The notes under the pieces are model-generated. The model had not been told where the DNA came from and did no database searches. It worked only from the letters and a program-made list of their open reading frames with translations. Both the position numbers and the translations under genes were made by a program. From Nitratireductor aquimarinus (GTDB lineage Bacteria > Pseudomonadota > Alphaproteobacteria > Rhizobiales > Rhizobiaceae), in assembly GCF_017255295.1 (NCBI RefSeq), contig NZ_JAFKDE010000010.1:1-64000 (forward strand): DNA of 64,000 bases. Reading direction: 5' to 3'. Shown piece by piece: positions 25,001 to 63,072 of this stretch. Numbering within the stretch: the stretch's first letter is position 1; each line of letters begins with the position of its first letter.

Positions 25001-25097
25001 GGGGAAGTGCTGGATCACTTCCCCGGCGGTGGGGCCGGTTCGCTTCGCGTTTCTGCGAACCGGTGAATAGGTCCGGTGTCGCCGCGCCGGACCTATT
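25001..25097. terminator. Three consecutive perfect hairpins between EF-hand and sox genes
   Basis: Three back-to-back perfect stems occupy the convergent intergenic region: GGGGAAGTG/CACTTCCCC (25001-25024), CCGGTTCGC/GCGAACCGG (25035-25063) and AATAGGTCCGG/CCGGACCTATT (25066-25097). The last overlaps the soxG stop codon. None has a strong U tract, but together they would form a stable transcript end for both converging units. Confidence 0.6.
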
Positions 25098-28669: not shown

Positions 28670-28944
28670 GCGGCGTCTCCGCTTTTGGCGTTGCCGCGAA
28701 CGGGAGCGACCGCGTGAATTTCATGGGTCAGCGTGTCCCGCTCCACCACCAGATGCGCGCGGCACCCTCCGGTATGCTGCCAGTATTCCCGGTGGCGCCC
28801 CGCCGGATTGGGCCGGTTATAGACATAGTCGAGCCACGCCTGCGTGTCGGTCGAGGCGGGATCGGGCCGGGTGCGCGTCGCGTCGCCCTGATAGGAGAAT
28901 TCGGCGAGGTCGCGGGGGCCGCAATGCGGGCAGTCGATCAGCAT
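28666..28944 (-). CDS. soxD: Sarcosine oxidase delta subunit
   Basis: A 92-residue zinc-binding subunit: LIDCPHCGPRDLAEFSYQGDA at the N-terminus supplies Cys5 and Cys8, and HTGGCRAHLVVERDT supplies the distal His and Cys ligands. It holds the heterotetramer together. It sits between soxB (10 bases upstream) and soxA (4-base overlap). Confidence 0.93.
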   Translation of the reverse strand: MLIDCPHCGPRDLAEFSYQGDATRTRPDPASTDTQAWLDYVYNRPNPAGRHREYWQHTGGCRAHLVVERDTLTHEIHAVAPVRGNAKSGDAA

Positions 28945-28954
28945 GGCGGTTCCC

Positions 28955-47008: not shown

Positions 47009-47169
47009 ATTGCCTCCCGATCGCGCATGATGCTCTCTCCTCATCATGCTGCTGTCGTCAAAGCGTCATCAGGAAAAGGGTTTTCTGTCAATGCGGCAGG
47101 CGCGGGCAGTCCCAGCTTTATGTACGCCCAACCCAACTGTTTCGTGGCGAATTCTTAAACGGTAGAACG

Positions 47170-49972: not shown

Positions 49973-52027
49973 TCAGTCGCGCCGCCGCCGCGCCGCGCGT
50001 TCTTCGCGTGAGCGTCTGCGCGGGCGCGCTTCGCCATCGCCGTTTTGCGCATCCGCCAGCTGTCGTGGCGGCAGAGTCACCCGTTCGGCCAGCCTGGGAA
50101 AGGCGTCGATCTTGTTGGGCAGCGCCATGGCGTGCACGAAATGCTCCTGGAACTTCGGCTCCAGCGCCGTCTCGATCTTTTCGATGCGCTGCACCGTCTC
50201 CTCGATTTCGCGCCGGTGGTCGCGGTTCAAAAGCGCCATGCGCGCGCCGGTGCCCGCAGCATTGCCCACCGCTGAAACCCGGTCGGGATCGCAATCGGGA
50301 ATGAGCCCCAGCACCATGGCGTAAAGCGGATCGATGAAGGAGCCGAATGCGCCGGCGAAACGGATCGTGTCCACCGTCGCCACCGCCTGCTTTTCCATCA
50401 AAAGCCTGATGCCTGCATAGAGTGCGGCCTTGGCGAGCTGGATCGCCCGCACATCGTTCTGGGTCACGGTCAGGCGCGGGCCGCTCTCCTTCAGAACGTA
50501 GGAGAAGGTGCGTCCCTCGGCGATGATGCGCGGGTTCGTCTCTGCCAGTGCTCCGTTCACCACGCCATCTTCCGAGATGATGCCGCTCAGATACATCTCC
50601 GCAATCACCTCGATGATGCCCGAACCGCAAATGCCGGTCACGCCGGTTTCGCCCAGCGCTTCGGCAAAGCCGGGCTCGTCCGACCAGAGATCGCAGCCGA
50701 TCACGCGATAGCGCGGAGCGAGTGTTTCGCGGTCGATGCGCACCCGCTCGATGGCGCCGGGGGCGGCGCGCTGGCCGGCGGAAATCTCGGCGCCCTCGAA
50801 GGCAGGGCCTGTCGGCGAGGAGGCAGCCACCACGCGCGCCCGGTTGCCAAGCACGATCTCCGCATTGGTGCCCACATCGACAATCAGCATCATCTCGTCC
50901 TGCCGGTGCGGACCTTCTGCCAGCGTCACGGCAGAAGCGTCCGCGCCCACATGGCCGGCGATGCAGGGCAGGAGATAGGTTCGCGCACCGGGGTTGAGCT
51001 TCAGCCTGAGATCGTCGGCCTTGAGCTTCACCGCGCCCGACACGGCCAGCGCGAAGGGCGCGCCGCCCAGCTCCGTCGGGTCGATCCCCAGAAACAGGTG
51101 GTGCATGATGGGGTTGGCGACGAACACCGCATCGAGAATGTCATGCCGTTCGATGCCGCCATCGTCCGCCACTTTCTGCACCAGTTTCGAGATTTCCTGC
51201 CGCACGGCGCGCGTCATGGCCTCGCGCCCGTCCGGGTTCATCATCACATAGGAAACCCGGCTCATCAGGTCTTCGCCAAACCGGATCTGCGGGTTCGACG
51301 CTCCGGCAGACGCCACCACGCGGCCCGACAGAAGCGAGACGAGATGCATGGCGATGGTCGTGGAGCCGATGTCGCAGGCAAGCCCATAGGCTTCGTTCTT
51401 CAGTCCCGGCCACAGAGCCACCAGCCTTGGAATGTCGTCTTCGGCATCCTGATGCACGGCTGCGGTGACCGCCCACTGGCCGGCGCGCAGTATGCCCTGA
51501 ACCTGCGCCAGCAGGTGTGCATCCACTTCCATGCGCCCAAAGCCCCAGTCCTTCTGGAGCGCTGCCTTCAGCCGGTCGAGGTCTCCGAGCGGTCGGTGCA
51601 TGTCGGGTTCTTCCACCTCGACATAACAAAGGTGCATCGCCGGGCGACGCTCGATGATGCGGGTGTCGGCGTCCTTGCGCACCACCTGCGCATTGATGAC
51701 GGCATCCTGCGGCACGTCGATGACGAGATCGCCCTCGACTGTTGCCGAACAGGAGAGGCGGCGTCCCGCCGGCATGGCGCGTTTCTCCGCATAGCGCGCC
51801 TCGCGCGGGCCAACCTTCGAGATGTGCTCCTCGGAGGACGTGATCCTGTGCTTTGCGAATTGGCCTTCCTGAACCTCGATCTGGCATCGCCCGCAGGTCG
51901 CCCGCCCGCCGCACACGCTCTCCACATAGACGCCAAGCTGTCGCGCCGCGTCCAGAATTGTCGTGCCTTTGGGAAAGCGCCCGCGCTTGCCCGACGGCAT
52001 GAAGAGCACGAGCGGGTCGTCGCTCAT
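49973..52027 (-). CDS. RACo-type reductive activator of corrinoid protein (ferredoxin-ASKHA fusion)
   Basis: About 684 residues. The N-terminal 2Fe-2S ferredoxin domain has Cys39, Cys45, Cys48 (VCGGRATCGRC) and Cys93 (RRLSCSA). The remainder is a RACo middle and ASKHA-fold ATPase (LACDIGSTTIAMHLVSLLSG; MMLIVDVGTNAEIVLGNRA; GICGSGIIEVIAEMYLSG). It uses ATP and a low-potential electron to return inactive Co(II) corrinoid to Co(I). The last ~25 residues are an Arg-rich tail ending RPRRRSREERAARRRRD, not needed in known homologues. ATG 52027 has GGGGA six bases upstream. Last gene of the corrinoid gene group. Confidence 0.92.
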   Translation of the reverse strand: MSDDPLVLFMPSGKRGRFPKGTTILDAARQLGVYVESVCGGRATCGRCQIEVQEGQFAKHRITSSEEHISKVGPREARYAEKRAMPAGRRLSCSATVEGDLVIDVPQDAVINAQVVRKDADTRIIERRPAMHLCYVEVEEPDMHRPLGDLDRLKAALQKDWGFGRMEVDAHLLAQVQGILRAGQWAVTAAVHQDAEDDIPRLVALWPGLKNEAYGLACDIGSTTIAMHLVSLLSGRVVASAGASNPQIRFGEDLMSRVSYVMMNPDGREAMTRAVRQEISKLVQKVADDGGIERHDILDAVFVANPIMHHLFLGIDPTELGGAPFALAVSGAVKLKADDLRLKLNPGARTYLLPCIAGHVGADASAVTLAEGPHRQDEMMLIVDVGTNAEIVLGNRARVVAASSPTGPAFEGAEISAGQRAAPGAIERVRIDRETLAPRYRVIGCDLWSDEPGFAEALGETGVTGICGSGIIEVIAEMYLSGIISEDGVVNGALAETNPRIIAEGRTFSYVLKESGPRLTVTQNDVRAIQLAKAALYAGIRLLMEKQAVATVDTIRFAGAFGSFIDPLYAMVLGLIPDCDPDRVSAVGNAAGTGARMALLNRDHRREIEETVQRIEKIETALEPKFQEHFVHAMALPNKIDAFPRLAERVTLPPRQLADAQNGDGEARPRRRSREERAARRRRD

Positions 52028-52099
52028 GGCCATCCCCGCATGCCGGGAGCCTGTATCATGTCCGATGCCCTTATGCATGTCGGTATGTCCAAGGTTATC

Positions 52100-53053
52100 T
52101 TACTCCCGCGCGCGGCGCGCATCGCGTCCGCCGCGCCGCCGCCCGCTGCCCGAGGCAGGTGCTGCAGCGGGGGGCGCTGCTCCAGCCGCGGCTGGCTGAT
52201 GGTCGCGATAGGTCATGATCCAGCGGGAGCAGTTGGGGTCCGTGCCGTTCAGCACATTGGCCGCGCGCACCATCTCCATTTCCTGCGGGCGGCAGGGGTT
52301 CATGATGGCGCTCGTCATGCCGGCCCCGATCACCATCGGAATGAAACCGGCATTGATGCCGTGCCTGTGCGGCAGTCCGAACGAGATGTTGGAAAGCCCG
52401 CAGGTGGTGTTCACCTTCAATTCCTCGCGCAGCCGCCTGAGCAGCCGGAACACCTGCTGGCCGGCCGTGCCCATGGCGCCGATCGGCATCACCAGCGGAT
52501 CGACCACGATGTCATGCGCGGGAATGCCGAAATCGGCGGCGCGCTGGACGATCTTCTTCGCCACTTCGAAGCGCACATCGGGATCTTCCGAAATGCCGGT
52601 TTCGTCATTGGAAATGGCGACCACCGGCACATCGTACTTCTTGATCAGCGGCAGGATGGCTTCCAGCTTCTCTTCTTCGCCGGTCACCGAATTCACCAGC
52701 GGACGCCCCCTGGCAGCCTTCAACCCGGCCTCGATGGCGGCGGAAACGGAAGAGTCGATGGAGAGCGGCACGTCCACCAGCTCCTGCACGATCTCCAGGG
52801 TTTGCACCAGAAGGCCGGGTTCGGTGGCGTTGGGATCGACCGCCGTCACACCGGCATTCACGTCCAGCATGGTTGCACCGGCCGCAACTTGCGCCAGCGC
52901 ATCATTCTTCACCGTCTCGAAATTGCCTGCGACCATCTCTGCGGCGAGCTTCTTGCGCCCGGTCGGGTTGATGCGCTCGCCGATCACGCAAAAGGGCTGG
53001 TCGAAGCCGATCACGACTTCCTTTGTGGCAGAGGCGACGATGGTTCGGGTCAT
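52100..53053 (-). CDS. Methyl-THF:corrinoid methyltransferase-like protein (pterin-binding)
   Basis: A 317-residue TIM-barrel protein of the dihydropteroate synthase/MeTr family: CVIGERINPTGRKKLAAEM, GATMLDVNAGVTAVDP, PLSIDSSVSAAIEAGL, VAISNDETG, NTTCGLSNISFGLP. It would transfer a methyl group between corrinoid and THF. It has no DHPS-type context. The last ~38 residues are a low-complexity Ala/Pro then Arg tail ending SGRRRGGRDARRARE, beyond the usual barrel. It lies between RACo and MetF on the same strand. Confidence 0.9.
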   Translation of the reverse strand: MTRTIVASATKEVVIGFDQPFCVIGERINPTGRKKLAAEMVAGNFETVKNDALAQVAAGATMLDVNAGVTAVDPNATEPGLLVQTLEIVQELVDVPLSIDSSVSAAIEAGLKAARGRPLVNSVTGEEEKLEAILPLIKKYDVPVVAISNDETGISEDPDVRFEVAKKIVQRAADFGIPAHDIVVDPLVMPIGAMGTAGQQVFRLLRRLREELKVNTTCGLSNISFGLPHRHGINAGFIPMVIGAGMTSAIMNPCRPQEMEMVRAANVLNGTDPNCSRWIMTYRDHQPAAAGAAPPAAAPASGSGRRRGGRDARRARE

Positions 53054-53106
53054 TCACTGTCCTCCTGGGAGACATGAAACGCGCTTCATGTCGCTGATCG
53101 ATGATC

Positions 53107-54225
53107 TCAATTCGTATCGACACTCGTTTCGCTGGCGTCTTTCACCATCTCCACGGGTCGTTCGCTTGGGTTGTCATGCAGAATATGGTCGAGCCTTTCG
53201 GCGACCAGCGCATCGTCCAGACCGGGTTCGCGCTTCCATGGCCTGCGGCCCTTCAGAACGCCTGAATCATGCACGATCTCGGCCACGAACTCCTCCTGCC
53301 GGTAGGCCATGACATGAACGCCGGAAACGCCTTCGATCTCCTTCACCTCATTGATGATGTCGATGCACAGGCGCTTGCCTTCCTCTTTTTGGTTTTCGGC
53401 CCCTTCAAGCCGCGCGATCACGGCGTCGGGAATGTGCACGCCCGGCACATTGGTGCGGATCCAGCGTGCCGTCTTTGCCGATGCGAGCGGGCCGACACCC
53501 ACAAGGATGAAGCATTTTTCATCAAGCCCCATGTCGCGCACGCGCTTCATGTATTCCCTCAGCATCGGCACATCGTAGCAATACTGGCTCTGCACAAACT
53601 GCGCGCCGGCGGCGATCTTCTTGGCGAGCCGCTGGGGGCGAAAGTCACAGGGCGGGGCGAACGGATTGATCGCCGCGCCGAGAAACACCGCCGGCGGCGT
53701 GGTGAGCCTGCGGCCCGACAGGAATTTCTCCTCGTCGCGCATGGTCCGAACGGTCTCCAGAAGCGACATGCAGTCGAGGTCGAACACGGGTTTTGCGCCC
53801 GGCTGATCGCCGGCCTGCACGCCATCGCCCGTAAGGCACATGATGTTGCTCACGCCCATGGCCGCGGCCCCCAGCACGTCGCCCTGAATGGCGATGCGGT
53901 TCCGGTCGCGGCAGGCGATCTGCATGATGGTGGCGTAGCCCATGCGCGTCAGCAGCGCGCAGATGCCCATGGACGACATGTGGCAGTTCGCGCCCGATGC
54001 ATCCACTGCGTTGATGCCGTCCACCCAGCCGTCGAAGATCGCCGCCCGCTCATAGACATCCTGCGCATTGGCGCTGTCGGGCGGGTTCAGCTCTGCTGTC
54101 ACCGCAAATTCGCCGCGCCGCAGAACGCGTTCCAGCCGCCCGCGCGAGGCGTGGCCGGGCAGGGGCTCCAGCGGCAGGTCGACGCCTTCGGGGTTCTCAT
54201 CGATCTGCGGCGGGCGCGGGCTCAT
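53107..54225 (-). CDS. metF: Methylenetetrahydrofolate reductase
   Basis: A 372-residue flavoprotein TIM barrel: FAVTAELNPPDSAN near the N-terminus (catalytic Glu), QIACRDRNRIAIQGDVLGAA, IMCLTGDG, FVQSQYCYDV and FILVGVGPLASAKTA. In this context it probably runs in the oxidative direction, converting 5-methyl-THF from the corrinoid pathway to methylene-THF; in methionine synthesis it runs the other way. The ATG at 54225 overlaps the metV stop by four bases; the open frame upstream is a shadow of metV. Confidence 0.9.
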   Translation of the reverse strand: MSPRPPQIDENPEGVDLPLEPLPGHASRGRLERVLRRGEFAVTAELNPPDSANAQDVYERAAIFDGWVDGINAVDASGANCHMSSMGICALLTRMGYATIMQIACRDRNRIAIQGDVLGAAAMGVSNIMCLTGDGVQAGDQPGAKPVFDLDCMSLLETVRTMRDEEKFLSGRRLTTPPAVFLGAAINPFAPPCDFRPQRLAKKIAAGAQFVQSQYCYDVPMLREYMKRVRDMGLDEKCFILVGVGPLASAKTARWIRTNVPGVHIPDAVIARLEGAENQKEEGKRLCIDIINEVKEIEGVSGVHVMAYRQEEFVAEIVHDSGVLKGRRPWKREPGLDDALVAERLDHILHDNPSERPVEMVKDASETSVDTN

Positions 54226-54821
54226 GCGGCACTGCTCCCGGCTGCATTTTCGCGTTCCTGTGCGGCCCGCGCCGTCACCCGCAGCCAGGCCGAGCTCTCC
54301 CGCAGTGACTGATCCACAGGCTTCTGTACGTCGAGGATCGCATCGCCATTCCGCATTGCCTGCGCGCCTTCCCAGGCCTTCACCCACACGCAGGGCATGT
54401 CCGGCTCCACCTCGCAGTGCCCATTGGCCCGCACGCCCCCGCAGGGGCCGTTGCGCAACTGTTTCGGGCAGTTCATCGGGCACGACATGCCGGTGGAGGA
54501 AAGGATGCACTGGCCGCACATGCGGCAGTCGAACATCAGGCCCTTCACCTGCCGTTCAACAAATTTCACCGGCTTTTCAGCCCGTGCATAGCCGACGGCG
54601 TTCCAGAACGGATGCAGCGCCAGAAACAGGCTGGAGAAGCGCGCATAGACCCATTCGAGAAACCGCGCATGCCGAACCGACCAGCGCCGCATCGTGTAGC
54701 GTCGTTGCACGCGCCGCAGCGGCGACACGTCAGCCGGCCGGTAGGCAAGCCGCTCGCGGGTTTTCTTCACCAGCGTCGCCTGGGTTACCGTGGTCGTTTT
54801 TGTGCTGTCATTTCCCGTCAT
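54222..54821 (-). CDS. metV: MetV-type methylenetetrahydrofolate reductase C-terminal/zinc-finger protein
   Basis: About 199 residues. The core is Cys-rich: C99, C102, C105, C114, C118, C127, C136, C144 (FDCRMCGQCILSSTGMSC; NCPKQLRNGPCGG; HCEV; MPCVW), matching the MetV family that partners MetF in anaerobic one-carbon pathways and likely carries Fe-S clusters. ATG 54821 overlaps the preceding gene by 14 bases; a Met 16 codons upstream is less likely. With metF it forms a translationally coupled pair. Confidence 0.88.
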   Translation of the reverse strand: MTGNDSTKTTTVTQATLVKKTRERLAYRPADVSPLRRVQRRYTMRRWSVRHARFLEWVYARFSSLFLALHPFWNAVGYARAEKPVKFVERQVKGLMFDCRMCGQCILSSTGMSCPMNCPKQLRNGPCGGVRANGHCEVEPDMPCVWVKAWEGAQAMRNGDAILDVQKPVDQSLRESSAWLRVTARAAQERENAAGSSAA

Positions 54822-55110
54822 GACCGCCTGCCTTGACGAGCGCCACGAGGCGCGCCCTGTCATAATCACGCTCGATGGTTTCGAGTGCTCTGTCGGCTTC
54901 CGCCTCCAGATCGTCGCTGACGGAAACCGGATCGCCGCGCCGCCACTCGGCCAGATAGGCGTCGCTGTCGCGCGCGCCCACCCGCATGGCGCACATGTCT
55001 ATCGCCTCGGTAAAACGCAGCGGCAGTTCGCGCCTGGCGTTCTGCCGTCCTTTCCGGACGATCACCTGCGCGGGGATATCACGCCAGTATACCACGATCA
55101 GATTGGCCAT
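54808..55110 (-). CDS. Small protein of the so-called virulence factor family (PF13769-type)
   Basis: A 100-residue protein: NLIVVYWRDIPAQVIVRKGR, then LRFTEAIDMCAMRVGARDSDAYLAEWRRG and an acidic C-terminal helix ending DYDRARLVALVKAGG. It matches a small family whose database name, virulence factor, has little functional support. Its overlap with metV places it in the methyl-corrinoid unit, so a role as an accessory protein is more likely. Conserved Cys and Trp could bind a cofactor or partner. Confidence 0.75.
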   Translation of the reverse strand: MANLIVVYWRDIPAQVIVRKGRQNARRELPLRFTEAIDMCAMRVGARDSDAYLAEWRRGDPVSVSDDLEAEADRALETIERDYDRARLVALVKAGGHDGK

Positions 55111-55225
55111 AAGCGCTTGTTCCTTCCTCCGTTTTCAGCATTGCCGAATGCATTGCGCGCCCGCTTGCTGGCGGGCGACGCGCGCGCATTCAAATGCGAC
55201 GTGGAAGAAGGTGGAACGGCAATAG

Positions 55226-55271
55226 TCCGGATCGTCCCTTGTGCGTCCTGTGGGACGCACAAGGGCGATCT
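55226..55271. repeat. RIME-like repeat, short form
   Basis: Contains GTCCCTTGTGCGTCCTGTGGGACGCACAAGGGCGATC, a near-perfect hairpin. It corresponds to the second module of the elements at 23328-23430 and 44436-44527. It lies between ExoD and the methyl-corrinoid unit. Confidence 0.7.
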
Positions 55272-55917
55272 AGTGCATCACGGCGCCGGCCATCATGCTG
55301 GCGCCGACCACGACGCCGGCAATCACCAGAAGCGAAAGCACGCCGCATGTGATGGCGATGCTGAGAAGGATGCCGTCACGCTCCGAAAGCGCGAGGCCCA
55401 CCAGCACGCAGGAAAAGGCCGGGAACCAGTTGCCGAGCGGGATCGGCAGCGTCACCGCAATCGAGAGAACCAGCGCAATGAGGCCTATGACCCGGTCTGC
55501 ATGGTCCCGTGCAAACGGCCAGTAACGCGGCTTGATCAGCCGTTCGACGAGGATCAGCCGGGGAATGAAGCGCTCGCTCATATGGCGAAACTTGTCGGCC
55601 CCGATGGATTTGTTGAGCAGGAAGTTGGGCAGCCAGACGGTACGGTTGCCCATCACCATCTGGATCGCAATCAGCACCAGCGGCGGTCCCAGGATCACCG
55701 TGCTGCCGGGCGGAAAGGGCAGGAGATTGAGGCAGGCGAAGAACACGAAAAGCGTCGCAAAGCTGCGATCGCCGAGCGCCTGGCGGATTTCGCCGATGGA
55801 AACCTTGTCTTCTGCACGTTTTGCCAGGTCGCGGAAAATGCGCGACAGCCGGCGCGGCGGCAGCTCAGCGGGCGGTGCGCCCAACACCGTGTCCAAGTCC
55901 GTTCCCTCAGCTTTCAT
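55270..55917 (-). CDS. exoD: ExoD-family membrane protein
   Basis: A 215-residue membrane protein of the ExoD family: LSRIFRDLAKRAEDKVSIGEI, DRSFATLFVFFACLNLLPFPPGSTVILGPPLVLIAIQMVMG, and four or five predicted helices. In Sinorhizobium exoD mutants are affected in exopolysaccharide production and alkaline tolerance. It has no direct link to the corrinoid genes although it lies between two groups of them. Confidence 0.87.
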   Translation of the reverse strand: MKAEGTDLDTVLGAPPAELPPRRLSRIFRDLAKRAEDKVSIGEIRQALGDRSFATLFVFFACLNLLPFPPGSTVILGPPLVLIAIQMVMGNRTVWLPNFLLNKSIGADKFRHMSERFIPRLILVERLIKPRYWPFARDHADRVIGLIALVLSIAVTLPIPLGNWFPAFSCVLVGLALSERDGILLSIAITCGVLSLLVIAGVVVGASMMAGAVMH

Positions 55918-56029
55918 CGTACTCGTCTTGCCCGCCCTGCGAATCCCAAAGGGGACGTCAAACAGTCTTGTTCGAATGCCGTTAAGCCTTCATGACAATG
56001 GCTGCAAGCTTCCGCCCCCATCCGATATG

Positions 56030-56659
56030 TTATTGCGCCCGTCGAATTTCCATGATGTCGAGGATGGATTCTCGCTCCGGCGCTGGAAATTCAATGCGCC
56101 ATTGCGCTTCGCCGTCGCGGAAAACATAGCCCACCTGATCGGTGTCGCGCCCTGCGCCATAGGCGGGCGGTTGGTCGCCACTCACCGAAAAGACGCCGAG
56201 ATAGATCATGCGCGAATCGCCATCGTCGAAAAAATGTCCGTCCGTCAGCTGTGATCCGGTCAGCTTCTCAAAGAACCAGCCCGATCCGTCATCGCTGACC
56301 TCGCACCCGAACCAGCCATAGACGATGAGTGGCGCAAGCCCCCCGGTCTTGATGGTGCGGCATTGCCACGCGCCGGAGAGGTCGAGCCCCTGAAAGGAGC
56401 GCTTCTGCCGCCCGTCGATCTCGTCGAGTAGCGCGATGTCTTCTGCCGCGCCGCCGGCTCTGGCCTGTTTGAAAGCCTCGCCGCGCATCCGCTCGTAGGC
56501 ATCAAGCCGCGCCGCATCACGATAGGTGATCTTCTGTACGACCGAGTCTTTCTCAAAACCGGCCCGCTCCATGTCGAGTTTCTCCTGAACCAGCGACTGG
56601 GCATTGGCCGCGCCGGCCATGAGGCCGAGCGCCAGTGAAATGGTGATGAGACGGTGCAT
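56030..56659 (-). CDS. DUF4893 secreted protein
   Basis: A 209-residue protein with a signal peptide (MHRLITISLALGLMAGAANA) and the DUF4893 pattern: TYRDAARLDAYERMRGEAFKQAR, LSGAWQCRTIKTGGLAPLIVYGWF, GSQLTDGHFFDDGDSRMIYLG and QVGYVFRDGEAQWRIEFPAPE. Function unknown. The ATG at 56659 has GGAG seven bases upstream; a Met nine codons upstream is less likely. Confidence 0.82.
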   Translation of the reverse strand: MHRLITISLALGLMAGAANAQSLVQEKLDMERAGFEKDSVVQKITYRDAARLDAYERMRGEAFKQARAGGAAEDIALLDEIDGRQKRSFQGLDLSGAWQCRTIKTGGLAPLIVYGWFGCEVSDDGSGWFFEKLTGSQLTDGHFFDDGDSRMIYLGVFSVSGDQPPAYGAGRDTDQVGYVFRDGEAQWRIEFPAPERESILDIMEIRRAQ

Positions 56660-56727
56660 GAGTTTCTCCGGAACGCAGGTCAGCAAAGCACCGCCAATGT
56701 AACCATTTCATGGCGGTTTCCGAAGCG

Positions 56728-57378
56728 TCAGTGGTTTTTCAGCGCTCCTGCCAGGGCTGCCGGCAGGTCGCCATACCCGGTTTGCCGCTTTTCATAGGCG
56801 AGGCCAAGCAGGCGCGCCGCCTTCTGCGCCACGGCCTCAAGCGCAGGATCTTCCGTTTGCGCCAGGTAGACAAGCTTTTGATAATTGCCGAAAAAGTCCT
56901 GAATGAGCTCCGGGTGCCGGTCGAGCCCCATCGGCTTCATGAAGAACGCGTCGAACTGGCGGCAGAGAAAATCCGTCATGTAGAAGGAGAGCATGTCCGC
57001 CTCGGCAACCGCTTCAAAGCGGGAAAGCCCCTGGTAGAAGGCGAAGCAGTGCGGGCCTTCTATGCGTTCCACCCCATGCTTTTCGCAAACCCGGTCGAGC
57101 CCGCCGCCCGTGCCGCAATCGGCATAGCCCGCGAAAATGTGGCGATAGCCCTGCGCACGCGCCTCCCGGATGGCTTTGTCCATGGCAGGCGCGATGCGCT
57201 CGGGACGGTAGTGAAATTCCGCCGGCAGGCAGGTGAGTTCCAGATGGTCGAAGCCGTAGCGGTCGCGCACCGCAAGGATTTCGCGCGCAATCATTCCGCA
57301 GGCGATGACAAGAACGCGCTCCGGGACGGGAACTTTCGCGGGGCTGAGAACTTTTTCCGGTTTTGCGCGTTCATTCAT
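56728..57378 (-). CDS. DUF1638 protein of the corrinoid methyltransferase group
   Basis: A 216-residue protein: VLVIACGMIAREILAVRDRYG, LTCLPAEFHYRPERIAPAMD, IFAGYADCGTGGGLDRVCEKHG, RIEGPHCFAFYQGLSRFEAV and SFYMTDFLCRQFDAFF. Cys27, Cys88, His110 and Cys111 are candidate metal ligands. DUF1638 genes often accompany MttB/MtbC-type genes in methanogens and Proteobacteria, but their biochemical role is not established. It lies about 240 bases downstream of the corrinoid protein gene on the same strand, so it probably belongs to the same unit. Confidence 0.85.
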   Translation of the reverse strand: MNERAKPEKVLSPAKVPVPERVLVIACGMIAREILAVRDRYGFDHLELTCLPAEFHYRPERIAPAMDKAIREARAQGYRHIFAGYADCGTGGGLDRVCEKHGVERIEGPHCFAFYQGLSRFEAVAEADMLSFYMTDFLCRQFDAFFMKPMGLDRHPELIQDFFGNYQKLVYLAQTEDPALEAVAQKAARLLGLAYEKRQTGYGDLPAALAGALKNH

Positions 57379-57427
57379 CGTGGCGGCCCAGTCTGTTCGG
57401 GCGGTCTATCCGTGAGGGAGATAAACC

Positions 57428-57586
57428 ATGAAACTTTCCACTCTTTCCCGTCTGGCGATCCTCGTTCTGGTCGCAGGCTCTGCAGCCGGCTGCGCCAACA
57501 CGATCCGCGGCGTCGGTCAGGATACGGCGAATGCGGTCGATGCGACCCAGAATGCCGGTCGCAATGTCGTGCGCGCCGCCAACTGA
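57428..57586 (+). CDS. Entericidin-like small lipoprotein
   Basis: Translated directly, 52 residues: MKLSTLSRLAILVLVAGSAA, then GCANTIRGVGQDTANAVDAT and QNAGRNVVRAAN. The lipobox AAGC and the Gly/Asn/Asp-rich mature part match entericidin A/B family lipoproteins. GAGGGAG lies six bases before the ATG. Its plus-strand placement between DUF1638 and the corrinoid protein gene breaks that unit on the other strand but does not interrupt it. Confidence 0.83.
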   Translation: MKLSTLSRLAILVLVAGSAAGCANTIRGVGQDTANAVDATQNAGRNVVRAAN

Positions 57587-57617
57587 CATTTCGGGCACCG
57601 CCCGGCCCTGAAGAAGG

Positions 57618-58316
57618 TCAGGCGCCGGCCGTCAGATTGTGCTTGCGCCTGATCAGTTCCTTGGCGGTTTCCACCGTCACCGCCGCATCGCGGCAATAGG
57701 CGTCCGCGCCCACGGCCTGGCCAAATTCCTCGTTGAGCGGCGCTCCGCCCACCAGAACGATGTAATTGTCGCGGATGCCCTTTTCCTTCATCGTGTCGAT
57801 CACGACCTTCATATAGGGCATGGTCGTCGTCAGCAGCGCCGACATGCCGACAATGTCGGGCTGGTGCTCTTCGATTGCCGCCAGATAGTTCTCGACCGGG
57901 TTGTTGATGCCGATGTCGATCACGTCGAAGCCCGCGCCCTCCATCATCATGCTGACGAGGTTCTTGCCGATGTCGTGAATGTCGCCCTTCACGGTGCCGA
58001 TCACCATCTTGCCCTGTTTGGGTGCGCCGGTTTCGGCCAGAAGGGGCCTCAGGATCGCCATGCCAGCTTTCATGGCATTGGCTGACAAAAGCACTTCGGG
58101 AACGAACAGAATGCCGTCGCGGAAATCCTCGCCGACGATCCGCATGCCTTCGACCAGCGCCTCGGTCAGAACCTCATAGGGCTTCCAGCCCCGGTCCAGA
58201 AGAATGCGCGTGCCTTCTTCGATCTCCTCCCTGAGCCCGTCATAGAGGTCGTCATGCATCTGCTGCACGAGTTCGTCGTCCGCAAGCTCGGACAGGATGA
58301 TCTCGTCGTCGGACAT
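57618..58316 (-). CDS. Corrinoid protein (MtbC/MtaC-type B12-binding)
   Basis: A 232-residue methyl-carrier protein. The N-terminal helical cap covers about 1-95. The B12 domain has the base-off motif GDIHDIGKNLV with D112, H114 and G117, then GAGFDVIDIGINNPVE, MSALLTTTMPYM and VLVGGAPL. The lower axial His is H114. It takes a methyl group from an MttB-type enzyme and passes it to the MeTr-type protein. ATG 58316 has GGGAG upstream. Likely first gene of the leftward corrinoid group, with DUF1638 next. Confidence 0.93.
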   Translation of the reverse strand: MSDDEIILSELADDELVQQMHDDLYDGLREEIEEGTRILLDRGWKPYEVLTEALVEGMRIVGEDFRDGILFVPEVLLSANAMKAGMAILRPLLAETGAPKQGKMVIGTVKGDIHDIGKNLVSMMMEGAGFDVIDIGINNPVENYLAAIEEHQPDIVGMSALLTTTMPYMKVVIDTMKEKGIRDNYIVLVGGAPLNEEFGQAVGADAYCRDAAVTVETAKELIRRKHNLTAGA

Positions 58317-58651
58317 TCTCTGGCTCCCGCTGCTCACATTGCGCGGGCAGGGCTTCCCGTTCCGCGCTCCGGATTGCTCGCAAACATGCGTCTCAAAGGA
58401 GAATAGGGCGCGATCTGCCGGTTCCCATGGCTGATTTGCGACCTGCAGCGCAGGGAAAGCGACGGGGGAGGGGCGGCTGGTATCTTTCCCCCGCTTCGGA
58501 TGGCGCGCGTTCGCGGGTTCGGAAGGCGATAAAACTGTTAACCATGATCAGGAATAAATGCAACTTTAGATTACATTCTTCTTTTCTAAAATGCTTCCCA
58601 TGGTAGTGTTTCTTCAAGGGGCGGCCCACGCGTATCAAGTAGGAGTCGCAT
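58317..58651. other. Divergent intergenic region between corrinoid protein and SCPU-like cassette
   Basis: No coding sequence is convincing in these 335 bases. The right 100 bases (about 58540-58620) are AT-rich compared with their surroundings (for example ATTACATTCTTCTTTTCTAA) and are the likely promoter area of the rightward cassette; GTAGGAG at 58639-58645 is its ribosome-binding site. No riboswitch-like structure is recognised. Confidence 0.6.
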
Positions 58652-59125
58652 ATGCGTATGTCCCTTGTGGCGGGTGCCGTTCTCACGGTGCTTGCTTCAC
58701 CATCCATCGCCTTTGCCGCCAGTGGCATTATCCCGTTCCGTGGAGAGGTTAATTCCACCTGTGTCATTACGGTGGATTCTCCGGGAACCCTGGGTATCAG
58801 CGGTGATTTTACCGTCTTGAGTTCCGATTTGAGCGGCGGCATAGCCGGTCGCGCATCCGTTCTGGCGACGGGCGCGGGATACTCCTTGTCGACCACGGCG
58901 CCGACCGCATTTTCCTCGGCGCCGCCGACCGGCAATGCTCATGTAACTTTTGCATCCAAGTATACGACGACGGGCGCGACCAGCGTGACGGATATTCCTG
59001 GTCCAACTTTGACCCCACTTTCAACGGGCCTCACGATGGCTAGCGTCGACCTCACGGCGACGAAGTCCACGGGGATCTTTGCCGTCGGCACCTACATCGC
59101 CGACGTCACGATCACCTGCGAGTAG
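58652..59125 (+). CDS. SCPU/pilin-like secreted protein, cassette copy 1 (gene A1)
   Basis: A 157-residue protein with a signal peptide (LVAGAVLTVLASPSIAFAA) and a beta-rich mature part. A Cys near the start (STCVITV, C37) and one at the end (VTITCE, C156) could form the disulfide of an incomplete-Ig pilin-like fold, as in spore coat U (SCPU) or Csu-type subunits. Repeated Thr/Ser/Gly and alternating hydrophobic strands fit. Assignment is by pattern, not a clear family motif. Followed 9 bases later by B1. Confidence 0.7.
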   Translation: MRMSLVAGAVLTVLASPSIAFAASGIIPFRGEVNSTCVITVDSPGTLGISGDFTVLSSDLSGGIAGRASVLATGAGYSLSTTAPTAFSSAPPTGNAHVTFASKYTTTGATSVTDIPGPTLTPLSTGLTMASVDLTATKSTGIFAVGTYIADVTITCE

Positions 59126-59134
59126 GAGGCAGCC

Positions 59135-59521
59135 ATGATGGCGAAGTTTGTCGCGGCGATCGTCGTTCTGGCGACGGTCACGCCTGCCGCAGCACAATCC
59201 ATGACACCGATGCGCGGGGAGATCAGAAGCTTCTCCGACAGCTTCGCCGTGCGGGTTCGCCCGCACAATCCGTACCGCCATCGCATTGAGGTGGCGGTGC
59301 GGGTCTATGACGAGGATTTCCGACCGATTGCGGCGAAGGTCGTACCCTCGAAAATGATGCTGGGGAGCGATGTGTCGCGTCCTGTTCTGGTCTCCGTCGA
59401 TTTCGGCGAGAGCAGAACCAGACGCGTGCGGATTTGCACGGAGAGCATTCCCTTTCCCGATCAGAAAACGAGGATTAGAGCCCAGATATGTGGACGCTTC
59501 ATCGCTTACCGCGCCAATTGA
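59135..59521 (+). CDS. Chaperone-like single-domain secreted protein, cassette copy 1 (gene B1)
   Basis: A 128-residue protein with a signal peptide ending at AAAQ. The mature part has SFAVRVRPHNPYRHRIEVAV, then VPSKMMLGSDVSRPVLVSVDF and RRVRICTESIPFP, resembling the N-terminal Ig domain of PapD-type periplasmic chaperones but without the second domain. Two cysteines (C101, C119) may pair. AGGAGG precedes the ATG. Paired with A1, it may help fold or cap the pilin-like protein; this is inference. Confidence 0.65.
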   Translation: MMAKFVAAIVVLATVTPAAAQSMTPMRGEIRSFSDSFAVRVRPHNPYRHRIEVAVRVYDEDFRPIAAKVVPSKMMLGSDVSRPVLVSVDFGESRTRRVRICTESIPFPDQKTRIRAQICGRFIAYRAN

Positions 59522-59940
59522 GCGTGGCCCTGTGTTTCCTGCTGGCTGGTGCGGCCGCCAGCCATGCAGAGGATCAGTACATCATCAATCAGAACCAGAC
59601 AGGCGTGACCCTGCCGGGCGTCACGATGCCAAACGGGTTTGACGAAGTGCGTGCCGCAGATGGCACCACCTGTCGCGCTTCCATGTCCGGTTCCGGTGCG
59701 TATCTCGATTCCGGCGTCATTGGCGGCGCGAATGACAACGTATCGGCCTATGGCCGTCTCGTTGTGCCCTTGGGAGAAAGGCCGACGCGCCTTAACTGCG
59801 ACCGGCTTTATCAGCTGGAGATTGAGCGGCTGGAGCTTGAGGTTCAGCTCATGCGGCAGGGGCTGGACCCGCGCATGAGTTCCCGGTCATCGGGCAGTTG
59901 GGCGAGCGACGCCTCCTGGACCAACAAGGGCAGGCGCTGA
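59488..59940 (+). CDS. Secreted protein of unknown family, cassette copy 1 (gene C1)
   Basis: A 150-residue protein with a signal peptide (LSVALCFLLAGAAASHA). The mature part has QYIINQNQTGVTLPGVTMP, NGFDEVRAADGTTCRAS, YGRLVVPLGERPTRLNCD and a C-terminal helix RLYQLEIERLELEVQLMRQ. Two cysteines may pair. I recognise no family. It starts inside B1 in another frame (34-base overlap), so translation is probably coupled. Its paralogue is at 60869-61342. Confidence 0.7.
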   Translation: MWTLHRLPRQLSVALCFLLAGAAASHAEDQYIINQNQTGVTLPGVTMPNGFDEVRAADGTTCRASMSGSGAYLDSGVIGGANDNVSAYGRLVVPLGERPTRLNCDRLYQLEIERLELEVQLMRQGLDPRMSSRSSGSWASDASWTNKGRR

Positions 59941-59952
59941 AAAGCGCCTGCC
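59929..59952 (+). terminator. GAAA-loop hairpin over the C1 stop codon
   Basis: GGCAGGCGCT (59929-59938) pairs perfectly with AGCGCCTGCC (59943-59952) around a GAAA tetraloop. The stem begins in the last codons of C1 and contains its stop. A short TACTTTAAA follows, so it could be a weak terminator or attenuator between the two cassettes. Confidence 0.5.
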
Positions 59953-60045
59953 TACTTTAAAGCAGATATGCAATGTTCCTTTATTTCATTTGACGATCTC
60001 TTTTGTTTGAGTAATTCTATATTTATTTTTCAAATGAGGTTTAAA

Positions 60046-60504
60046 GTGAAGTATTTATTTTCATTATTGTTATTATTATCCTATTCAACATCTGCCTCTG
60101 CATTGGAGGCCAATATTCCGTTCAAAGCAGTGATCGATGATACATGCAGCGTGGAGTTTCAGACCCCAGGCAAACTGGCGCGCGATGGCTTCTATGCGCT
60201 CGATTCTGCAGCGTCTGGCGGTCGCGCCGGTGTTGCCGCCATTTACACCACCTCGTCTGGTTTCAAGGTCAATCTGCGCAACCCGAAGAACTTCACCACC
60301 GCGCCCGCTGGTGATGCGTCTGCGACATTCACTTCCAGCTATAAAACCAGCGGTGGAACAACGACTTCCAGTGTTTCAGGGGCGACGAAGACCCCGCTGG
60401 AAATGGGCGTGACAAATGTCGTTGTAAACCTGCGCGCAGTCTCTCAGAAGTCGATCTTTCACAAGGGAAAATACGAAACCTTTGTCACGGTCGTTTGCGA
60501 GTAG
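60046..60504 (+). CDS. SCPU/pilin-like secreted protein, cassette copy 2 (gene A2)
   Basis: A ~152-residue paralogue of A1. The signal peptide is MKYLFSLLLLLSYSTSASA; mature part ANIPFKAVIDDTCSVEFQT (C34) with a terminal VVCE (C151). GTG 60046 is preferred because GAGG lies six bases upstream; ATG 60034 is in frame but has no ribosome-binding site. Its signal sequence and leader are strikingly AT-rich (59960-60110) compared with the rest of the window. Next gene begins 8 bases after the stop. Confidence 0.68.
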   Translation: MKYLFSLLLLLSYSTSASALEANIPFKAVIDDTCSVEFQTPGKLARDGFYALDSAASGGRAGVAAIYTTSSGFKVNLRNPKNFTTAPAGDASATFTSSYKTSGGTTTSSVSGATKTPLEMGVTNVVVNLRAVSQKSIFHKGKYETFVTVVCE

Positions 60505-60512
60505 GCACGGCC

Positions 60513-60899
60513 ATGCTCCGGTTTGTCATGATGTTCGGTGCCGCTCTCGCCGCATCGACGCCACCTGCATTTTCGCAGTCAATGTCTCCCATGCGCGGTG
60601 TGGTCCGTAGCTATACGGACAGCTTTGCCGTCCGCGTTTATCCGCAAAACCCTTACAGCCACCGGATCGACGTCGCCGTGCGCGTTTACGATGCCGAATT
60701 CCGGCCCGTGAAAGCACGCGTGACGCCTCAGACTTTTACGCTCGGAGCAAAACAGTCGCGTCCGGTTGTTGTTGTGGTCAATTTCGAAGGCGAGCGCGAA
60801 CGTCGCGTGCGGATATGCACGGAAAGCATCCCGTTTCCCGAAGCTCATCTTGGTATGAAGGCACAGATATGCGGAAAGTTCATTGCACACCGGCTGTGA
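60513..60899 (+). CDS. Chaperone-like single-domain secreted protein, cassette copy 2 (gene B2)
   Basis: A 128-residue paralogue of B1 with exactly the same length. Shared blocks include SFAVRV.P.NPY.HRI.VAV, SRPV and RRVRICTESIPFP, with C102 and C120 matching C101 and C119 of B1. The signal peptide is MLRFVMMFGAALAASTPPAF. The ATG at 60513 mirrors the B1 start (stop of A, a short spacer, then ATG). A TTG at 60495 would overlap A2 and is less likely. Confidence 0.68.
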   Translation: MLRFVMMFGAALAASTPPAFSQSMSPMRGVVRSYTDSFAVRVYPQNPYSHRIDVAVRVYDAEFRPVKARVTPQTFTLGAKQSRPVVVVVNFEGERERRVRICTESIPFPEAHLGMKAQICGKFIAHRL

Positions 60900-61342
60900 T
60901 CGGTTTGGCCGTCTGCATGGCCTCTCTAGCGGGTGGAGCCAGAGCAAGCGAGCAGGTCTATGCCGTCAGGCAGAACCACAGTGGTTTCGCCCTGCCGGGG
61001 GTCGTCTCACCCAATGGATATGACGAAGTTCGCGCGGCCGACGGCACGACGTGTCACTCATCGATATCCAGTGGCGGAAGCTATTTCGATACGGGCGTCA
61101 TCAGCGATTCCCTGAACTCGCCCGACAAATCGCTGTCGGCTTATGGCCGGTTGGTCATTCCCCTGGGCGAACGGCCGAAGCGTCTCAATTGCGACCGGCT
61201 CTATCAACTCGAACTGCGGCGATTGCAGCTTGAGGTCAAGCTTCTGGAACAGGGGCTTGATCCGCGGATGATCGGTCACCAGCCCGCAGACCGGGCAGAC
61301 TGGTCGGAAAGCGGGGGCTGGACCGATGCCGGGCAAAGATGA
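60869..61342 (+). CDS. Secreted protein of unknown family, cassette copy 2 (gene C2)
   Basis: A 157-residue paralogue of C1. Shared segments include GFALPGVVSPNGYDEVRAAD, GTTCHSS, SAYGRLVIPLGERPKRLNCD and RLYQLELRRLQLEVKLLEQG. The signal peptide is VIGLAVCMASLAGGARA. As in copy 1 its ATG lies inside the B gene (31-base overlap in another frame). It lies 146 bases before mttB on the same strand. Family not recognised. Confidence 0.7.
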   Translation: MRKVHCTPAVIGLAVCMASLAGGARASEQVYAVRQNHSGFALPGVVSPNGYDEVRAADGTTCHSSISSGGSYFDTGVISDSLNSPDKSLSAYGRLVIPLGERPKRLNCDRLYQLELRRLQLEVKLLEQGLDPRMIGHQPADRADWSESGGWTDAGQR

Positions 61343-61488
61343 TGCGCCCTGACGTCCACAAGCCATGCCCTGCGACCGGCAGACCAGTTGCGACACCGCG
61401 TGCCGCTTGCGGAATGGAAGTCCATGCTGCAAACGCTAGGCTTGTGTTAGCACGATTGCTTGAGGACCCCTGACAGGGAGCTTGTGGG

Positions 61489-63072
61489 ATGACGGTGATG
61501 GCTGGAGACGACGAAGCACAGGATCGGCCACGTCGTGGACGGGCAGGGCGTGGCGAGCGCGGTGGTGCGGCGGCCCGCAGGGCGGCGAGAGCCGGTGCAG
61601 GGCCCGGGCCGCAGCTGACCTATATTCGCCGCACGCTCAGGCCCTTCGAGGTTCTGGACGAAGAAGCGCTGGCCTTGATCGAGGCCAATGCCGATACGGT
61701 TCTCGAAGAGATTGGCATCGAGTTTCGCGACGATCCCGAGGCGCTCTCCATGTGGAAGGAGGCAGGTGCGGATGTGCGTGGCGACCGGGTGCATTTCCCC
61801 AAAGGGCTCTGCCGCGCGCTCCTGAAAACCGCGCCTTCCACCTTCACCCAGCATGCACGCAATCCCGAGCGCTCGGTCGAGATTGGCGGCAACACCACCG
61901 TATTCGCGCCGGTCTATGGCCCGCCTTTCGTGCGCGATCTCGATGGCGCGCGCCGTTATGCGACGATTGAGGATTTCCGCAATTTCGTGAAGCTCGCCTA
62001 TATGGCGCCGTCCATTCATCATTCGGGCGGCACTGTCTGCGAACCGGTCGATGTGCCGGTCAACAAGCGGCATCTCGACATGGTGTTTGCGCATATGCGC
62101 TACTCCGACAAGCCCTTCATGGGCTCGGTAACAGCGCCGGATCGCGCCGAGGACACGGTGTCCATGGCCCGCATCCTGTTCGGCGAGAAGTTCGTCGATG
62201 AGAATGCGGTGGTGATCAACCTGATCAACGCCAATTCGCCCATGGTGTTTGACGAGACCATGCTGGGCGCGGCCAAGGTTTATGCGCGGGCCAATCAGGC
62301 CTGCATCGTCACGCCCTTCATTCTGGCCGGCGCCATGAGCCCGGTAACCGTGATCGGCACGCTGACGCAGGTTCTGGCCGAGGTCATGGCCGGCGCAGCC
62401 TTCACGCAGCTGGTGCGCCCCGGCGCGCCGGTTCTGTTCGGCACCTTCGCCTCGTCCATTTCCATGCAGTCGGGCGCGCCGACCTTTGGCACGCCGGAAC
62501 CCTCACTTGTTTCCTATGGCGCAGCACAGCTCGCCCGCCGGCTGGGATTGCCGTTCCGTACGGGTGGTTCGCTGACGGGGTCCAAGATCCCCGACGCGCA
62601 GGCTGCCTATGAGAGCGCGAATACGCTGAACTCGACCGTTATGTCGGGCACCAATTTCGTGCTCCACGCCGCTGGCTGGCTGGAGGGCGGGCTGGTGTCG
62701 TCCTATGAGAAATTCATGATGGACATCGACCAGCTGGGCATGCAGCAACGCTTTTGCGAACCGCTGGATGTTTCGGAAAACGGGCAGGCCATGGACGCCA
62801 TTCGCGAAGTGGGGCCGGGCAGCCATTATCTTGGATGCGCCCACACCCAGGCCAATTTCCAGACCGCTTTCTACCGCTCTTCCATCGCCGACAACAATTC
62901 CTATGAACAGTGGGCGGCGGAAGGCGAGAAAGCAGCGCATCAGCGGGCGAACCAGCTCGCCCGCAGCTGGCTGGAAGCCTATGAAGCGCCCCCGCTCGAT
63001 GCGGGCATCGAGGAGGGGCTTCTGGACTTCATCGCCCGGCGCAAGGAATCGATGCCCGACGCCTTCACCTGA
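61489..63072 (+). CDS. mttB: MttB-family methyltransferase (non-pyrrolysine)
   Basis: A 527-residue TIM-barrel methyltransferase of the trimethylamine/glycine betaine family. Visible segments include LTYIRRTLRPFEVLDEEALALI, FAPVYGPPFVRDLDGARRY, AYMAPSIHHSGGTVCEP, GSVTAPDRAEDTVSMARILF, ILAGAMSPVTVIGTLTQVLAEVMAG, SVSYGAAQLARRLG-like LVSYGAAQLARRLGLPFRTG and GPGSHYLGCAHTQANFQTAFYRS. No in-frame stop interrupts it, so it lacks pyrrolysine and belongs to the MtgB-like group, many of which use quaternary amines. Residues 13-40 form an extra Arg/Gly/Ala-rich tail. GGGAG precedes the ATG. It would methylate the corrinoid protein encoded at 57618-58316. Confidence 0.92.
   Translation: MTVMAGDDEAQDRPRRGRAGRGERGGAAARRAARAGAGPGPQLTYIRRTLRPFEVLDEEALALIEANADTVLEEIGIEFRDDPEALSMWKEAGADVRGDRVHFPKGLCRALLKTAPSTFTQHARNPERSVEIGGNTTVFAPVYGPPFVRDLDGARRYATIEDFRNFVKLAYMAPSIHHSGGTVCEPVDVPVNKRHLDMVFAHMRYSDKPFMGSVTAPDRAEDTVSMARILFGEKFVDENAVVINLINANSPMVFDETMLGAAKVYARANQACIVTPFILAGAMSPVTVIGTLTQVLAEVMAGAAFTQLVRPGAPVLFGTFASSISMQSGAPTFGTPEPSLVSYGAAQLARRLGLPFRTGGSLTGSKIPDAQAAYESANTLNSTVMSGTNFVLHAAGWLEGGLVSSYEKFMMDIDQLGMQQRFCEPLDVSENGQAMDAIREVGPGSHYLGCAHTQANFQTAFYRSSIADNNSYEQWAAEGEKAAHQRANQLARSWLEAYEAPPLDAGIEEGLLDFIARRKESMPDAFT

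What the first reader, a model, noticed from the sequence alone, without database searches (positions are those of the whole stretch)
49973..63072. Near-complete corrinoid methyltransferase pathway in an apparently aerobic alphaproteobacterium
MttB-type methyltransferase (61489), corrinoid protein (58316), DUF1638 (57378), a PF13769-type small protein, MetV, MetF, a MeTr-like protein and a RACo reductive activator lie together. These parts are best known from anaerobic methylotrophs. The rest of the window (O2-using sarcosine oxidase, PhyH dioxygenase, beta-oxidation genes) points to an aerobe. RACo must generate oxygen-sensitive Co(I), so this host would need a way to protect or repeatedly reactivate it. 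The proposed flow is quaternary amine to corrinoid to THF to methylene-THF.
Basis: partly seen in the sequence, partly recalled or inferred. Interest (0 to 1): 0.75.

Follow-up and report, generated by a model that had tools for sequence, protein, structure and literature searches.

The report
B12-dependent betaine demethylation gene cluster
This stretch of an oxygen-breathing bacterium's genome holds the parts of a vitamin-B12 machine that most likely strips methyl groups from betaine-type compounds; such machines are already described in aerobic bacteria, but here the last, methyl-oxidising enzyme is of a two-part type known from anaerobes, and that part is worth a new test.

Summary
In detail: all eight gene families are at the stated places in one conserved cluster. 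The host is an aerobe near Nitratireductor. The surprise is mostly gone. Aerobic cobalamin-dependent glycine betaine demethylation was described in Ruegeria in 2025 (PMC12478193: MtgC and MtgD by knockout; MttB, RamA, DUF1638 and MetF2 by proteomics) and the gene set noted in Sinorhizobium. What remains new here: in the slot next to MtgD most rhizobial clusters carry the two-subunit MetVF reductase of acetogens, while other alphaproteobacteria and some rhizobial ones carry another MetF2; of 80 named loci 24 have MetVF, 49 MetF2, none both, 7 neither. A small protein misnamed 'virulence factor' (PF13769) is in 76 of the 80. MetVF should here oxidise methyl-THF and pass electrons to something better than NAD+. 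That is inferred, not shown.

The parts
49973..52078 (-). RACo/RamA-like reductive activator of corrinoid proteins ([2Fe-2S] domain plus ASKHA domain)
   Evidence: Cys pattern C-x5-C-x2-C...C in 57 of 57 homologues over 100 bits among L140-L219; PDB 3zyy 317 bits
52100..53053 (-). MtgD: methyl-THF:corrinoid methyltransferase (pterin-binding)
   Evidence: 402 bits to NF005719 (cut-off 259)
53107..54225 (-). MetF subunit of a MetVF-type methylene-THF reductase; the listed ORF runs to 54519, start at 54225 inferred
   Evidence: 197 bits to the PRK08645-type model, 53 to TIGR00676 MetF; one of two MTHFR matches in the genome
54222..54869 (-). MetV: Cys-rich subunit (PF12225); true start perhaps 54821; stop overlaps the inferred MetF start (ATGA)
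   Evidence: cysteines conserved at 90% or more of 25 aligned sequences
54808..55110 (-). PF13769 small protein, 100 aa, function unknown
55270..55917 (-). ExoD-family protein, recurs in the cluster of relatives; role unknown
56030..56686 (-). DUF4893 protein, role unknown
56728..57378 (-). DUF1638 protein; a homologue is needed with the RamA-like protein for methionine synthesis in Phaeobacter (literature)
   Evidence: four Cys invariant in 23 aligned sequences; PMC5764234
57618..58337 (-). MtgC: corrinoid protein with DxHxxG...SxL...GG cobalamin motif
   Evidence: motif in 36 of 36 homologues over 100 bits among L140-L219
61489..63072 (+). MtgB (MttB superfamily, no pyrrolysine): probable quaternary amine:corrinoid methyltransferase; only MTTB match in the genome
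41852..44371 (+). dimethylglycine/sarcosine dehydrogenase-like protein, candidate next demethylation step
   Evidence: DAO, FAO_M, GCV_T domains
46010..47047 (-). GbdR-like AraC-type regulator (choline/betaine catabolism regulator family)
   Evidence: 365 bits, under the curated cut-off of 480
25093..30214 (-). sarcosine oxidase genes soxG (25093-25698), soxA (25676-28669), soxB (28955-30214)
   Evidence: soxA 1424 and soxB 730 bits, over cut-off; soxG 123.5 bits, under its cut-off of 143.95

Best explanation
It is the alphaproteobacterial MtgBCD system for demethylating a quaternary amine, most likely glycine betaine, in an aerobe. MtgB moves a methyl group from the amine to Co(I) of MtgC. 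MtgD moves it on to THF. A dedicated methyl-THF oxidising enzyme, here MetVF, makes methylene-THF for C1 oxidation or biosynthesis. RACo, with DUF1638, brings MtgC that has slipped to Co(II) back to Co(I) at the cost of ATP. Dimethylglycine is then taken to glycine by the dehydrogenase-like protein and sarcosine oxidase. MtgC and MtgD can also run the other way and, with MtgE encoded elsewhere in the genome, make methionine. Shown here: genes, motifs, synteny and genome context. Shown elsewhere: MtgC and MtgD needed for betaine growth and methionine (Ruegeria); MtgC, MtgD, MtgE, RamA-like protein and DUF1638 homologues needed for methionine (Phaeobacter). Inferred: the substrate, the activator step in this host, the direction and electron acceptor of MetVF, and use of MtgE in this host, which also has MetH.
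For: Families and motifs. MtgB scores 413 bits against PDB 2qne (recalled to be the Desulfitobacterium MtgB) and 411 against 9yce, named glycine betaine methyltransferase, but 132 against TMA methyltransferase. Among 60 genomes RACo is in 36; all 33 with PF13769, 32 of 33 with DUF1638 and 33 of 34 with MTTB are in that set. Of 17 genomes without the MetH activation domain 14 have RACo, and all 14 have a stand-alone PF02574 protein. The own genome has MetH, an MtgE-like protein (552 bits, cut-off 338), CobN and COX1-family genes. MtgE lies in one locus with MtgC in 13 of 56 loci of relatives, many of which are fragments. Published work: PMC12478193, PMC5764234.
Against: No experiment in this organism. 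In the parts of the 2025 paper that I read, mtgC and mtgD were deleted but mtgB was not, so the substrate of this MttB branch is not proven. All nine congeners have a second MTTB gene 6 to 8 kb from mtgE, and in the one such locus that I read (L103) a dimethylglycine dehydrogenase-like gene follows it; this could instead be their betaine enzyme, and this genome lacks it. The closest solved chain, 4yyc, is labelled putative trimethylamine methyltransferase. The GbdR-like regulator is under its curated cut-off. MtgE is not in the cluster here and MetH is present, so the methionine role may be idle.
Confidence: 0.85

Rival explanations
1. The cluster is mainly a split methionine synthase (MtgC, MtgD, MtgE with RACo and DUF1638); MttB is a side branch.
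For: G057 and G042 have RACo, DUF1638, MtgC, MtgD and a stand-alone PF02574 protein but no MTTB match and no MetH activation domain; same-genus G003 lacks that domain too.
Against: The window genome has full MetH with its own activation domain, and mtgE is not in the cluster; a second methylene-THF reductase sits in the cluster, which methionine making should not need.
Confidence: 0.2
2. The substrate is another quaternary amine, such as proline betaine, carnitine, gamma-butyrobetaine or choline, not glycine betaine.
For: MttB-like proteins of Eubacterium have different substrates (stated in PMC12478193; PMC8604678 and PMC12155760, search listing only); congeners hold two different MttB proteins.
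Against: Of the named enzymes among solved structures the glycine betaine methyltransferase is closer than the TMA enzyme; GbdR-like regulator, dimethylglycine dehydrogenase-like and sarcosine oxidase genes lie in the same window; the second MttB of a congener is farther from 2qne and 9yce (305 bits each).
Confidence: 0.3
3. The genes are unused anaerobic relics or recent imports.
For: MetV, RACo and MttB are best known from anaerobes.
Against: Intact frames, strict motif conservation, conserved order in relatives and CobN in the genome; G+C like the rest of the window.
Confidence: 0.02

Closest known systems
MtgBCD(E) of Ruegeria pomeroyi DSS-3 (PMC12478193; parts 1-4 of 6 and search passages read)
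   Same: Same set of MttB, corrinoid protein, pterin-binding MtgD, RamA-like activator, DUF1638 and a dedicated methylene-THF reductase, in an aerobic alphaproteobacterium; the paper notes the colocated set in S. meliloti, and that genomes with both MetH and MtgBCD are typically Hyphomicrobiales, SAR324 and certain alphaproteobacterial genera.
   Different: Here the reductase is MetVF instead of MetF2; MetH is kept; only one MTTB. The main text names neither MetV nor PF13769; its figures and supplements were not seen.
Split methionine synthase of Phaeobacter inhibens with RamA-like and DUF1638 proteins (PMC5764234; four passages read, one of them references)
   Same: Homologous MtgC, MtgD, RamA-like protein and DUF1638.
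   Different: There the role shown is methionine; here MttB and MetVF are in the cluster and MtgE is not.
Type II MetVF methylene-THF reductase of acetogens (PMC8760232; passages read)
   Same: MetF with an adjacent Cys-rich MetV; no RnfC2- or Hdr-like gene among the identified cluster genes. Acetogens also oxidise methyl-THF when grown on methanol (same paper), so the oxidising direction as such is not new.
   Different: In an aerobe, in a betaine cluster, where the reaction has to run towards oxidation and a respiratory acceptor is at hand.

Membership tests
Aerobic MtgBCD system | MttB-superfamily methyltransferase, stand-alone corrinoid protein and pterin-binding methyltransferase together | tested here: met
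Aerobic MtgBCD system | RamA/RACo activator and DUF1638 present | tested here: met
Aerobic MtgBCD system | mtgC and mtgD needed for growth on glycine betaine | not testable with these tools
   shown for Ruegeria in PMC12478193
Split methionine synthase (MtgCDE) | stand-alone homocysteine methyltransferase MtgE in the genome | tested here: met
   C3:490951; 552 bits to NF005718, cut-off 338
Split methionine synthase (MtgCDE) | replaces MetH in the host | tested here: not met
   full MetH with PF02965 at C2
MetVF-type methylene-THF reductase | MetF beside MetV with conserved cysteines | tested here: met
MetVF-type methylene-THF reductase | Fe-S clusters and methylene-THF/methyl-THF activity | not testable with these tools
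   no biochemistry; known for acetogens
Pyrrolysine TMA methyltransferase (MttB proper) | in-frame pyrrolysine codon and score over the TIGR02369 cut-off | tested here: not met
   open frame without a stop; 272 bits, cut-off 525
AcsV (CO dehydrogenase/acetyl-CoA synthase activator) | score over the NF040756 cut-off | tested here: not met
   388 bits, cut-off 800

The most novel reading that the evidence does not exclude
In most rhizobial clusters the anaerobe-type MetVF stands where relatives have MetF2, and works in the oxidising direction in air: electrons from methyl-THF (about -200 mV) go not to NAD+ but to a respiratory acceptor, perhaps a quinone reached through a membrane-near MetV N-terminus, with the PF13769 protein as an accessory of the MtgD-reductase step. 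Betaine methyl groups would then feed the respiratory chain directly.
Probability: 0.3. Interest if true: 0.65.

Novelty: new member of a known kind. Interest (0 to 1): 0.35.

Why it matters
The system itself is known, so the aerobe paradox of the finding is answered. It does bear on the puzzle stated in PMC5764234, why bacteria such as S. meliloti have the RamA-like protein and DUF1638 although they have MetH: the activator probably also serves betaine demethylation. If MetVF oxidises methyl-THF in air, it would help to settle in a genetically easy host which electron partner a type II MetVF can use, which is open in acetogens (PMC8760232), and could give PF13769, a family named as a virulence factor, a first role in this pathway.

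Tried and rejected
Whether DUF1638 or PF13769 resembles a solved fold: AlphaFold models were good (pLDDT 89.1 and 94.8), but Foldseek against the PDB gave nothing with E <= 0.001 (best 5.2e-3 and 0.54); no function is claimed from them. Whether PF13769 depends strictly on MttB or on the dedicated reductase: no. G042 and G046 have PF13769 without MTTB; G010, G051 and G055 have MTTB without PF13769; G047 has PF13769 with one PF02219 match and no MetF2 hit beside mtgD. G052 also has one PF02219 match, but the looser panel labels its cluster MetF2. PF13769 is most constant as a companion of MtgD (in 76 of 80 loci found with MtgD; missing in L189, whose contig begins just before mtgD, L206, L211 and L218). 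A betaine oxygenase as alternative route: the only Ring_hydroxyl_A match in the own genome (47 bits) looks by eye like an aromatic-ring dioxygenase with a small second subunit; no family model was run on it, so this is not excluded. My MtgD loop pattern fitted only 29 of 80 homologues and my MetV cysteine pattern none of 24, because I wrote them too narrowly; the invariant residues and the alignment are used instead. Caveat: quick tree with SH-aLRT only, 27 of 110 inner branches starred, one very long row (L113), and named and unnamed loci overlap (L141 equals L111, and L218 equals L129, in the tree). It needs at least 4 changes between MetVF and MetF2 (15 rows with neither not counted); direction cannot be told from it.
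Full report
What is there. Among the named loci L140-L219, homologues over 100 bits keep the cobalamin motif DxHxxG...SxL...GG of the corrinoid protein (36 of 36), the [2Fe-2S] cysteines of RACo (57 of 57) and four cysteines of DUF1638 (35 of 35) (the four are invariant in the 23-row alignment). MetV and MetF overlap by ATGA if MetF starts at 54225, as inferred from the translation.

Host. The window is bases 1-64000 of contig 10 of a 4.57 Mb genome rated 99.99% complete. The closest named MtgD is that of Nitratireductor sp. pb3 (95%); records very near the window's genome may be left out of that list. The genome has three COX1-family matches, CobN, a full MetH of 1264 aa with its activation domain, a stand-alone MtgE-like protein, two MTHFR matches, one of them the MetF here, and a single MTTB match. 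It looks like an aerobe that makes cobalamin; of the cobalamin genes only CobN was looked for.

Known system. PMC12478193 (parts 1-4 of 6 and search passages read) shows in Ruegeria pomeroyi that MtgC and MtgD are essential both for methionine synthesis and for growth on glycine betaine; MttB-type proteins, a RamA-like protein, DUF1638 and MetF2 rise in its proteome on N-osmolytes. It notes the colocated set in S. meliloti, and that genomes with both MetH and MtgBCD are typically restricted to Hyphomicrobiales, SAR324 and certain alphaproteobacterial genera. PMC5764234 (four passages) shows that a RamA-like protein and a DUF1638 protein are needed for methionine synthesis in Phaeobacter and calls their presence beside MetH in S. 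meliloti unexplained. The finding is thus a member of a described system, and the presumed paradox of anaerobic parts in an aerobe had been answered in print.

Conservation. In 60 relatives, window genome included, RACo is in 36, PF13769 in 33, all within those 36, DUF1638 in 33, 32 of them within, MTTB in 34, 33 of them within, MetV in 21, 19 of them within (not G018 and G051). The MetH activation domain is missing in 17 of 60. Of these 17, 14 have RACo, and all 14 have a stand-alone PF02574 protein; the other three are G014 and G015, small genomes, and G051, 88% complete. Of the 43 with the domain, 22 have RACo. These genomes are kin, so the counts are not independent. The usual order in relatives is mtgE, mttB (divergent), mtgC, DUF1638, PF13769, the reductase, mtgD, RACo (mtgE with mtgC in 13 of 56 loci, many of them fragments). 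In the window's genus mtgE lies elsewhere and a cassette of small genes stands between mttB and mtgC.

Second MttB. All nine congeners have a second MTTB gene, 6 to 8 kb from their mtgE; the window genome does not. I fetched two of these nine places (L103, L106) and read the frames of one. In L103 the gene is followed by a dimethylglycine dehydrogenase-like gene; the matching place in the window genome (L101) lacks both. The second protein scores 305 bits against 2qne and 157 against the TMA enzyme, the window protein 413 and 132; the closest chain to both is 4yyc (383 and 950 bits), labelled putative trimethylamine methyltransferase. That 2qne is the Desulfitobacterium betaine enzyme is recalled. 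This favours, without proving, glycine betaine as substrate of the window protein.

The reductase slot. In five clusters without MetVF that I read (L115, L118, L120, L124, L126) another MTHFR-like frame lies in the same place (two of them checked by Pfam). In 80 named loci MetVF is found in 24, the MetF2 type in 49, both in 0, neither in 7. Of the seven, one (L196) holds what looks by eye like an ordinary MetF, and three (L172, L173, L177) a CoA-transferase-like gene. PF13769 is in 76 of 80. On a quick MtgD tree of 115 rows (42 MetVF, 58 MetF2, 15 neither) at least four changes between the two types are needed; 39 of the 42 MetVF rows lie in one clade of 40 rows with support 96. The types do not follow family lines strictly: five genomes of the window's own family (G013, G019, G021, G028, G033) have MetF2, and MetVF also occurs in an Afifellaceae MAG (L168) and in G044 of another family. 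So one type has probably replaced the other in place, mostly once.

Why it matters. PMC8760232 (passages) gives -200 mV for methylene-/methyl-THF and -320 mV for NAD+, and says that MetF and MetV have no conserved NADH site and that no purified type II enzyme used NADH. It also treats methyl-THF oxidation by acetogens on methanol, so the oxidising direction alone is not new. In betaine demethylation the reaction must run towards methylene-THF. An acceptor better than NAD+ is therefore expected, and in an aerobe the respiratory chain is the natural candidate. The MetV N-terminal part holds conserved aromatic and hydrophobic residues that could sit near a membrane; this is a guess. Of the papers listed in three searches with MetV (2 of 2, 7 of 7, 8 of 47) none bears by title or abstract start on MetV in aerobic betaine demethylation, and a search for PF13769 found no paper; only an open-licence library was searched.

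Verdict. Observation confirmed; interpretation right in outline, its surprise mostly explained by published work. The MetVF exchange and the PF13769 link are the residue worth testing.

Noticed in passing
window 58652-61342: Two tandem copies of a three-gene cassette of small proteins without any Pfam match (by eye with signal-like N-termini; copies 37-39%, 62% and 50% identical), inserted between mtgC and mttB; relatives of these genes found in the 9 congener loci and in none of the other loci among L084-L139.
   Followed up: partly
window 54808-55110 and L140-L219: PF13769 ('Virulence factor') is a constant companion of MtgD in alphaproteobacteria (76 of 80 loci); the family name is misleading here. 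Its AlphaFold model (pLDDT 94.8) has no PDB match with E <= 0.001.
   Followed up: partly
window 56728-57378: DUF1638 has four invariant cysteines and two invariant histidines in 23 aligned sequences and no PDB fold match with E <= 0.001; a metal or Fe-S site is possible.
   Followed up: partly
L105/L106 (G003, same genus): A congener, 99% complete, without a MetH activation domain but with RACo, MtgC, MtgD and an MtgE-like gene: methionine presumably depends on the split enzyme there. MetE was not searched for.
   Followed up: partly
L117 (G018): MetVF kept in a genome without RACo, MTTB or DUF1638 matches, near genes that look by eye like a choline/betaine ABC transporter.
   Followed up: no
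L115:15309-16490 (G013): A Rieske oxygenase resembling betaine monooxygenase GbcA (117 bits, cut-off 670) sits between mtgD and RACo in this relative.
   Followed up: no
L107 (G004): The cluster's mttB lies in two frames in this congener, while its second MTTB gene has an open frame.
   Followed up: no
window 55270-55917: An ExoD-family gene recurs inside the cluster in several genera, for no known reason.
   Followed up: no
L089, L090, L099 (G057): RACo, MtgC, MtgD, DUF1638 and an MtgE-like gene without matches for MTTB, PF13769, MetV or the MetH activation domain, with an ordinary MetF close to mtgD: looks like a pure split methionine synthase.
   Followed up: partly
L172, L173, L177: PF13769, MtgD and RACo next to a CoA-transferase-like gene with no MttB or MtgC within the fetched flanks: perhaps another use of the same module.
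   Followed up: no
window 3-839: IS3 family transposase at the very edge of the window.
   Followed up: no
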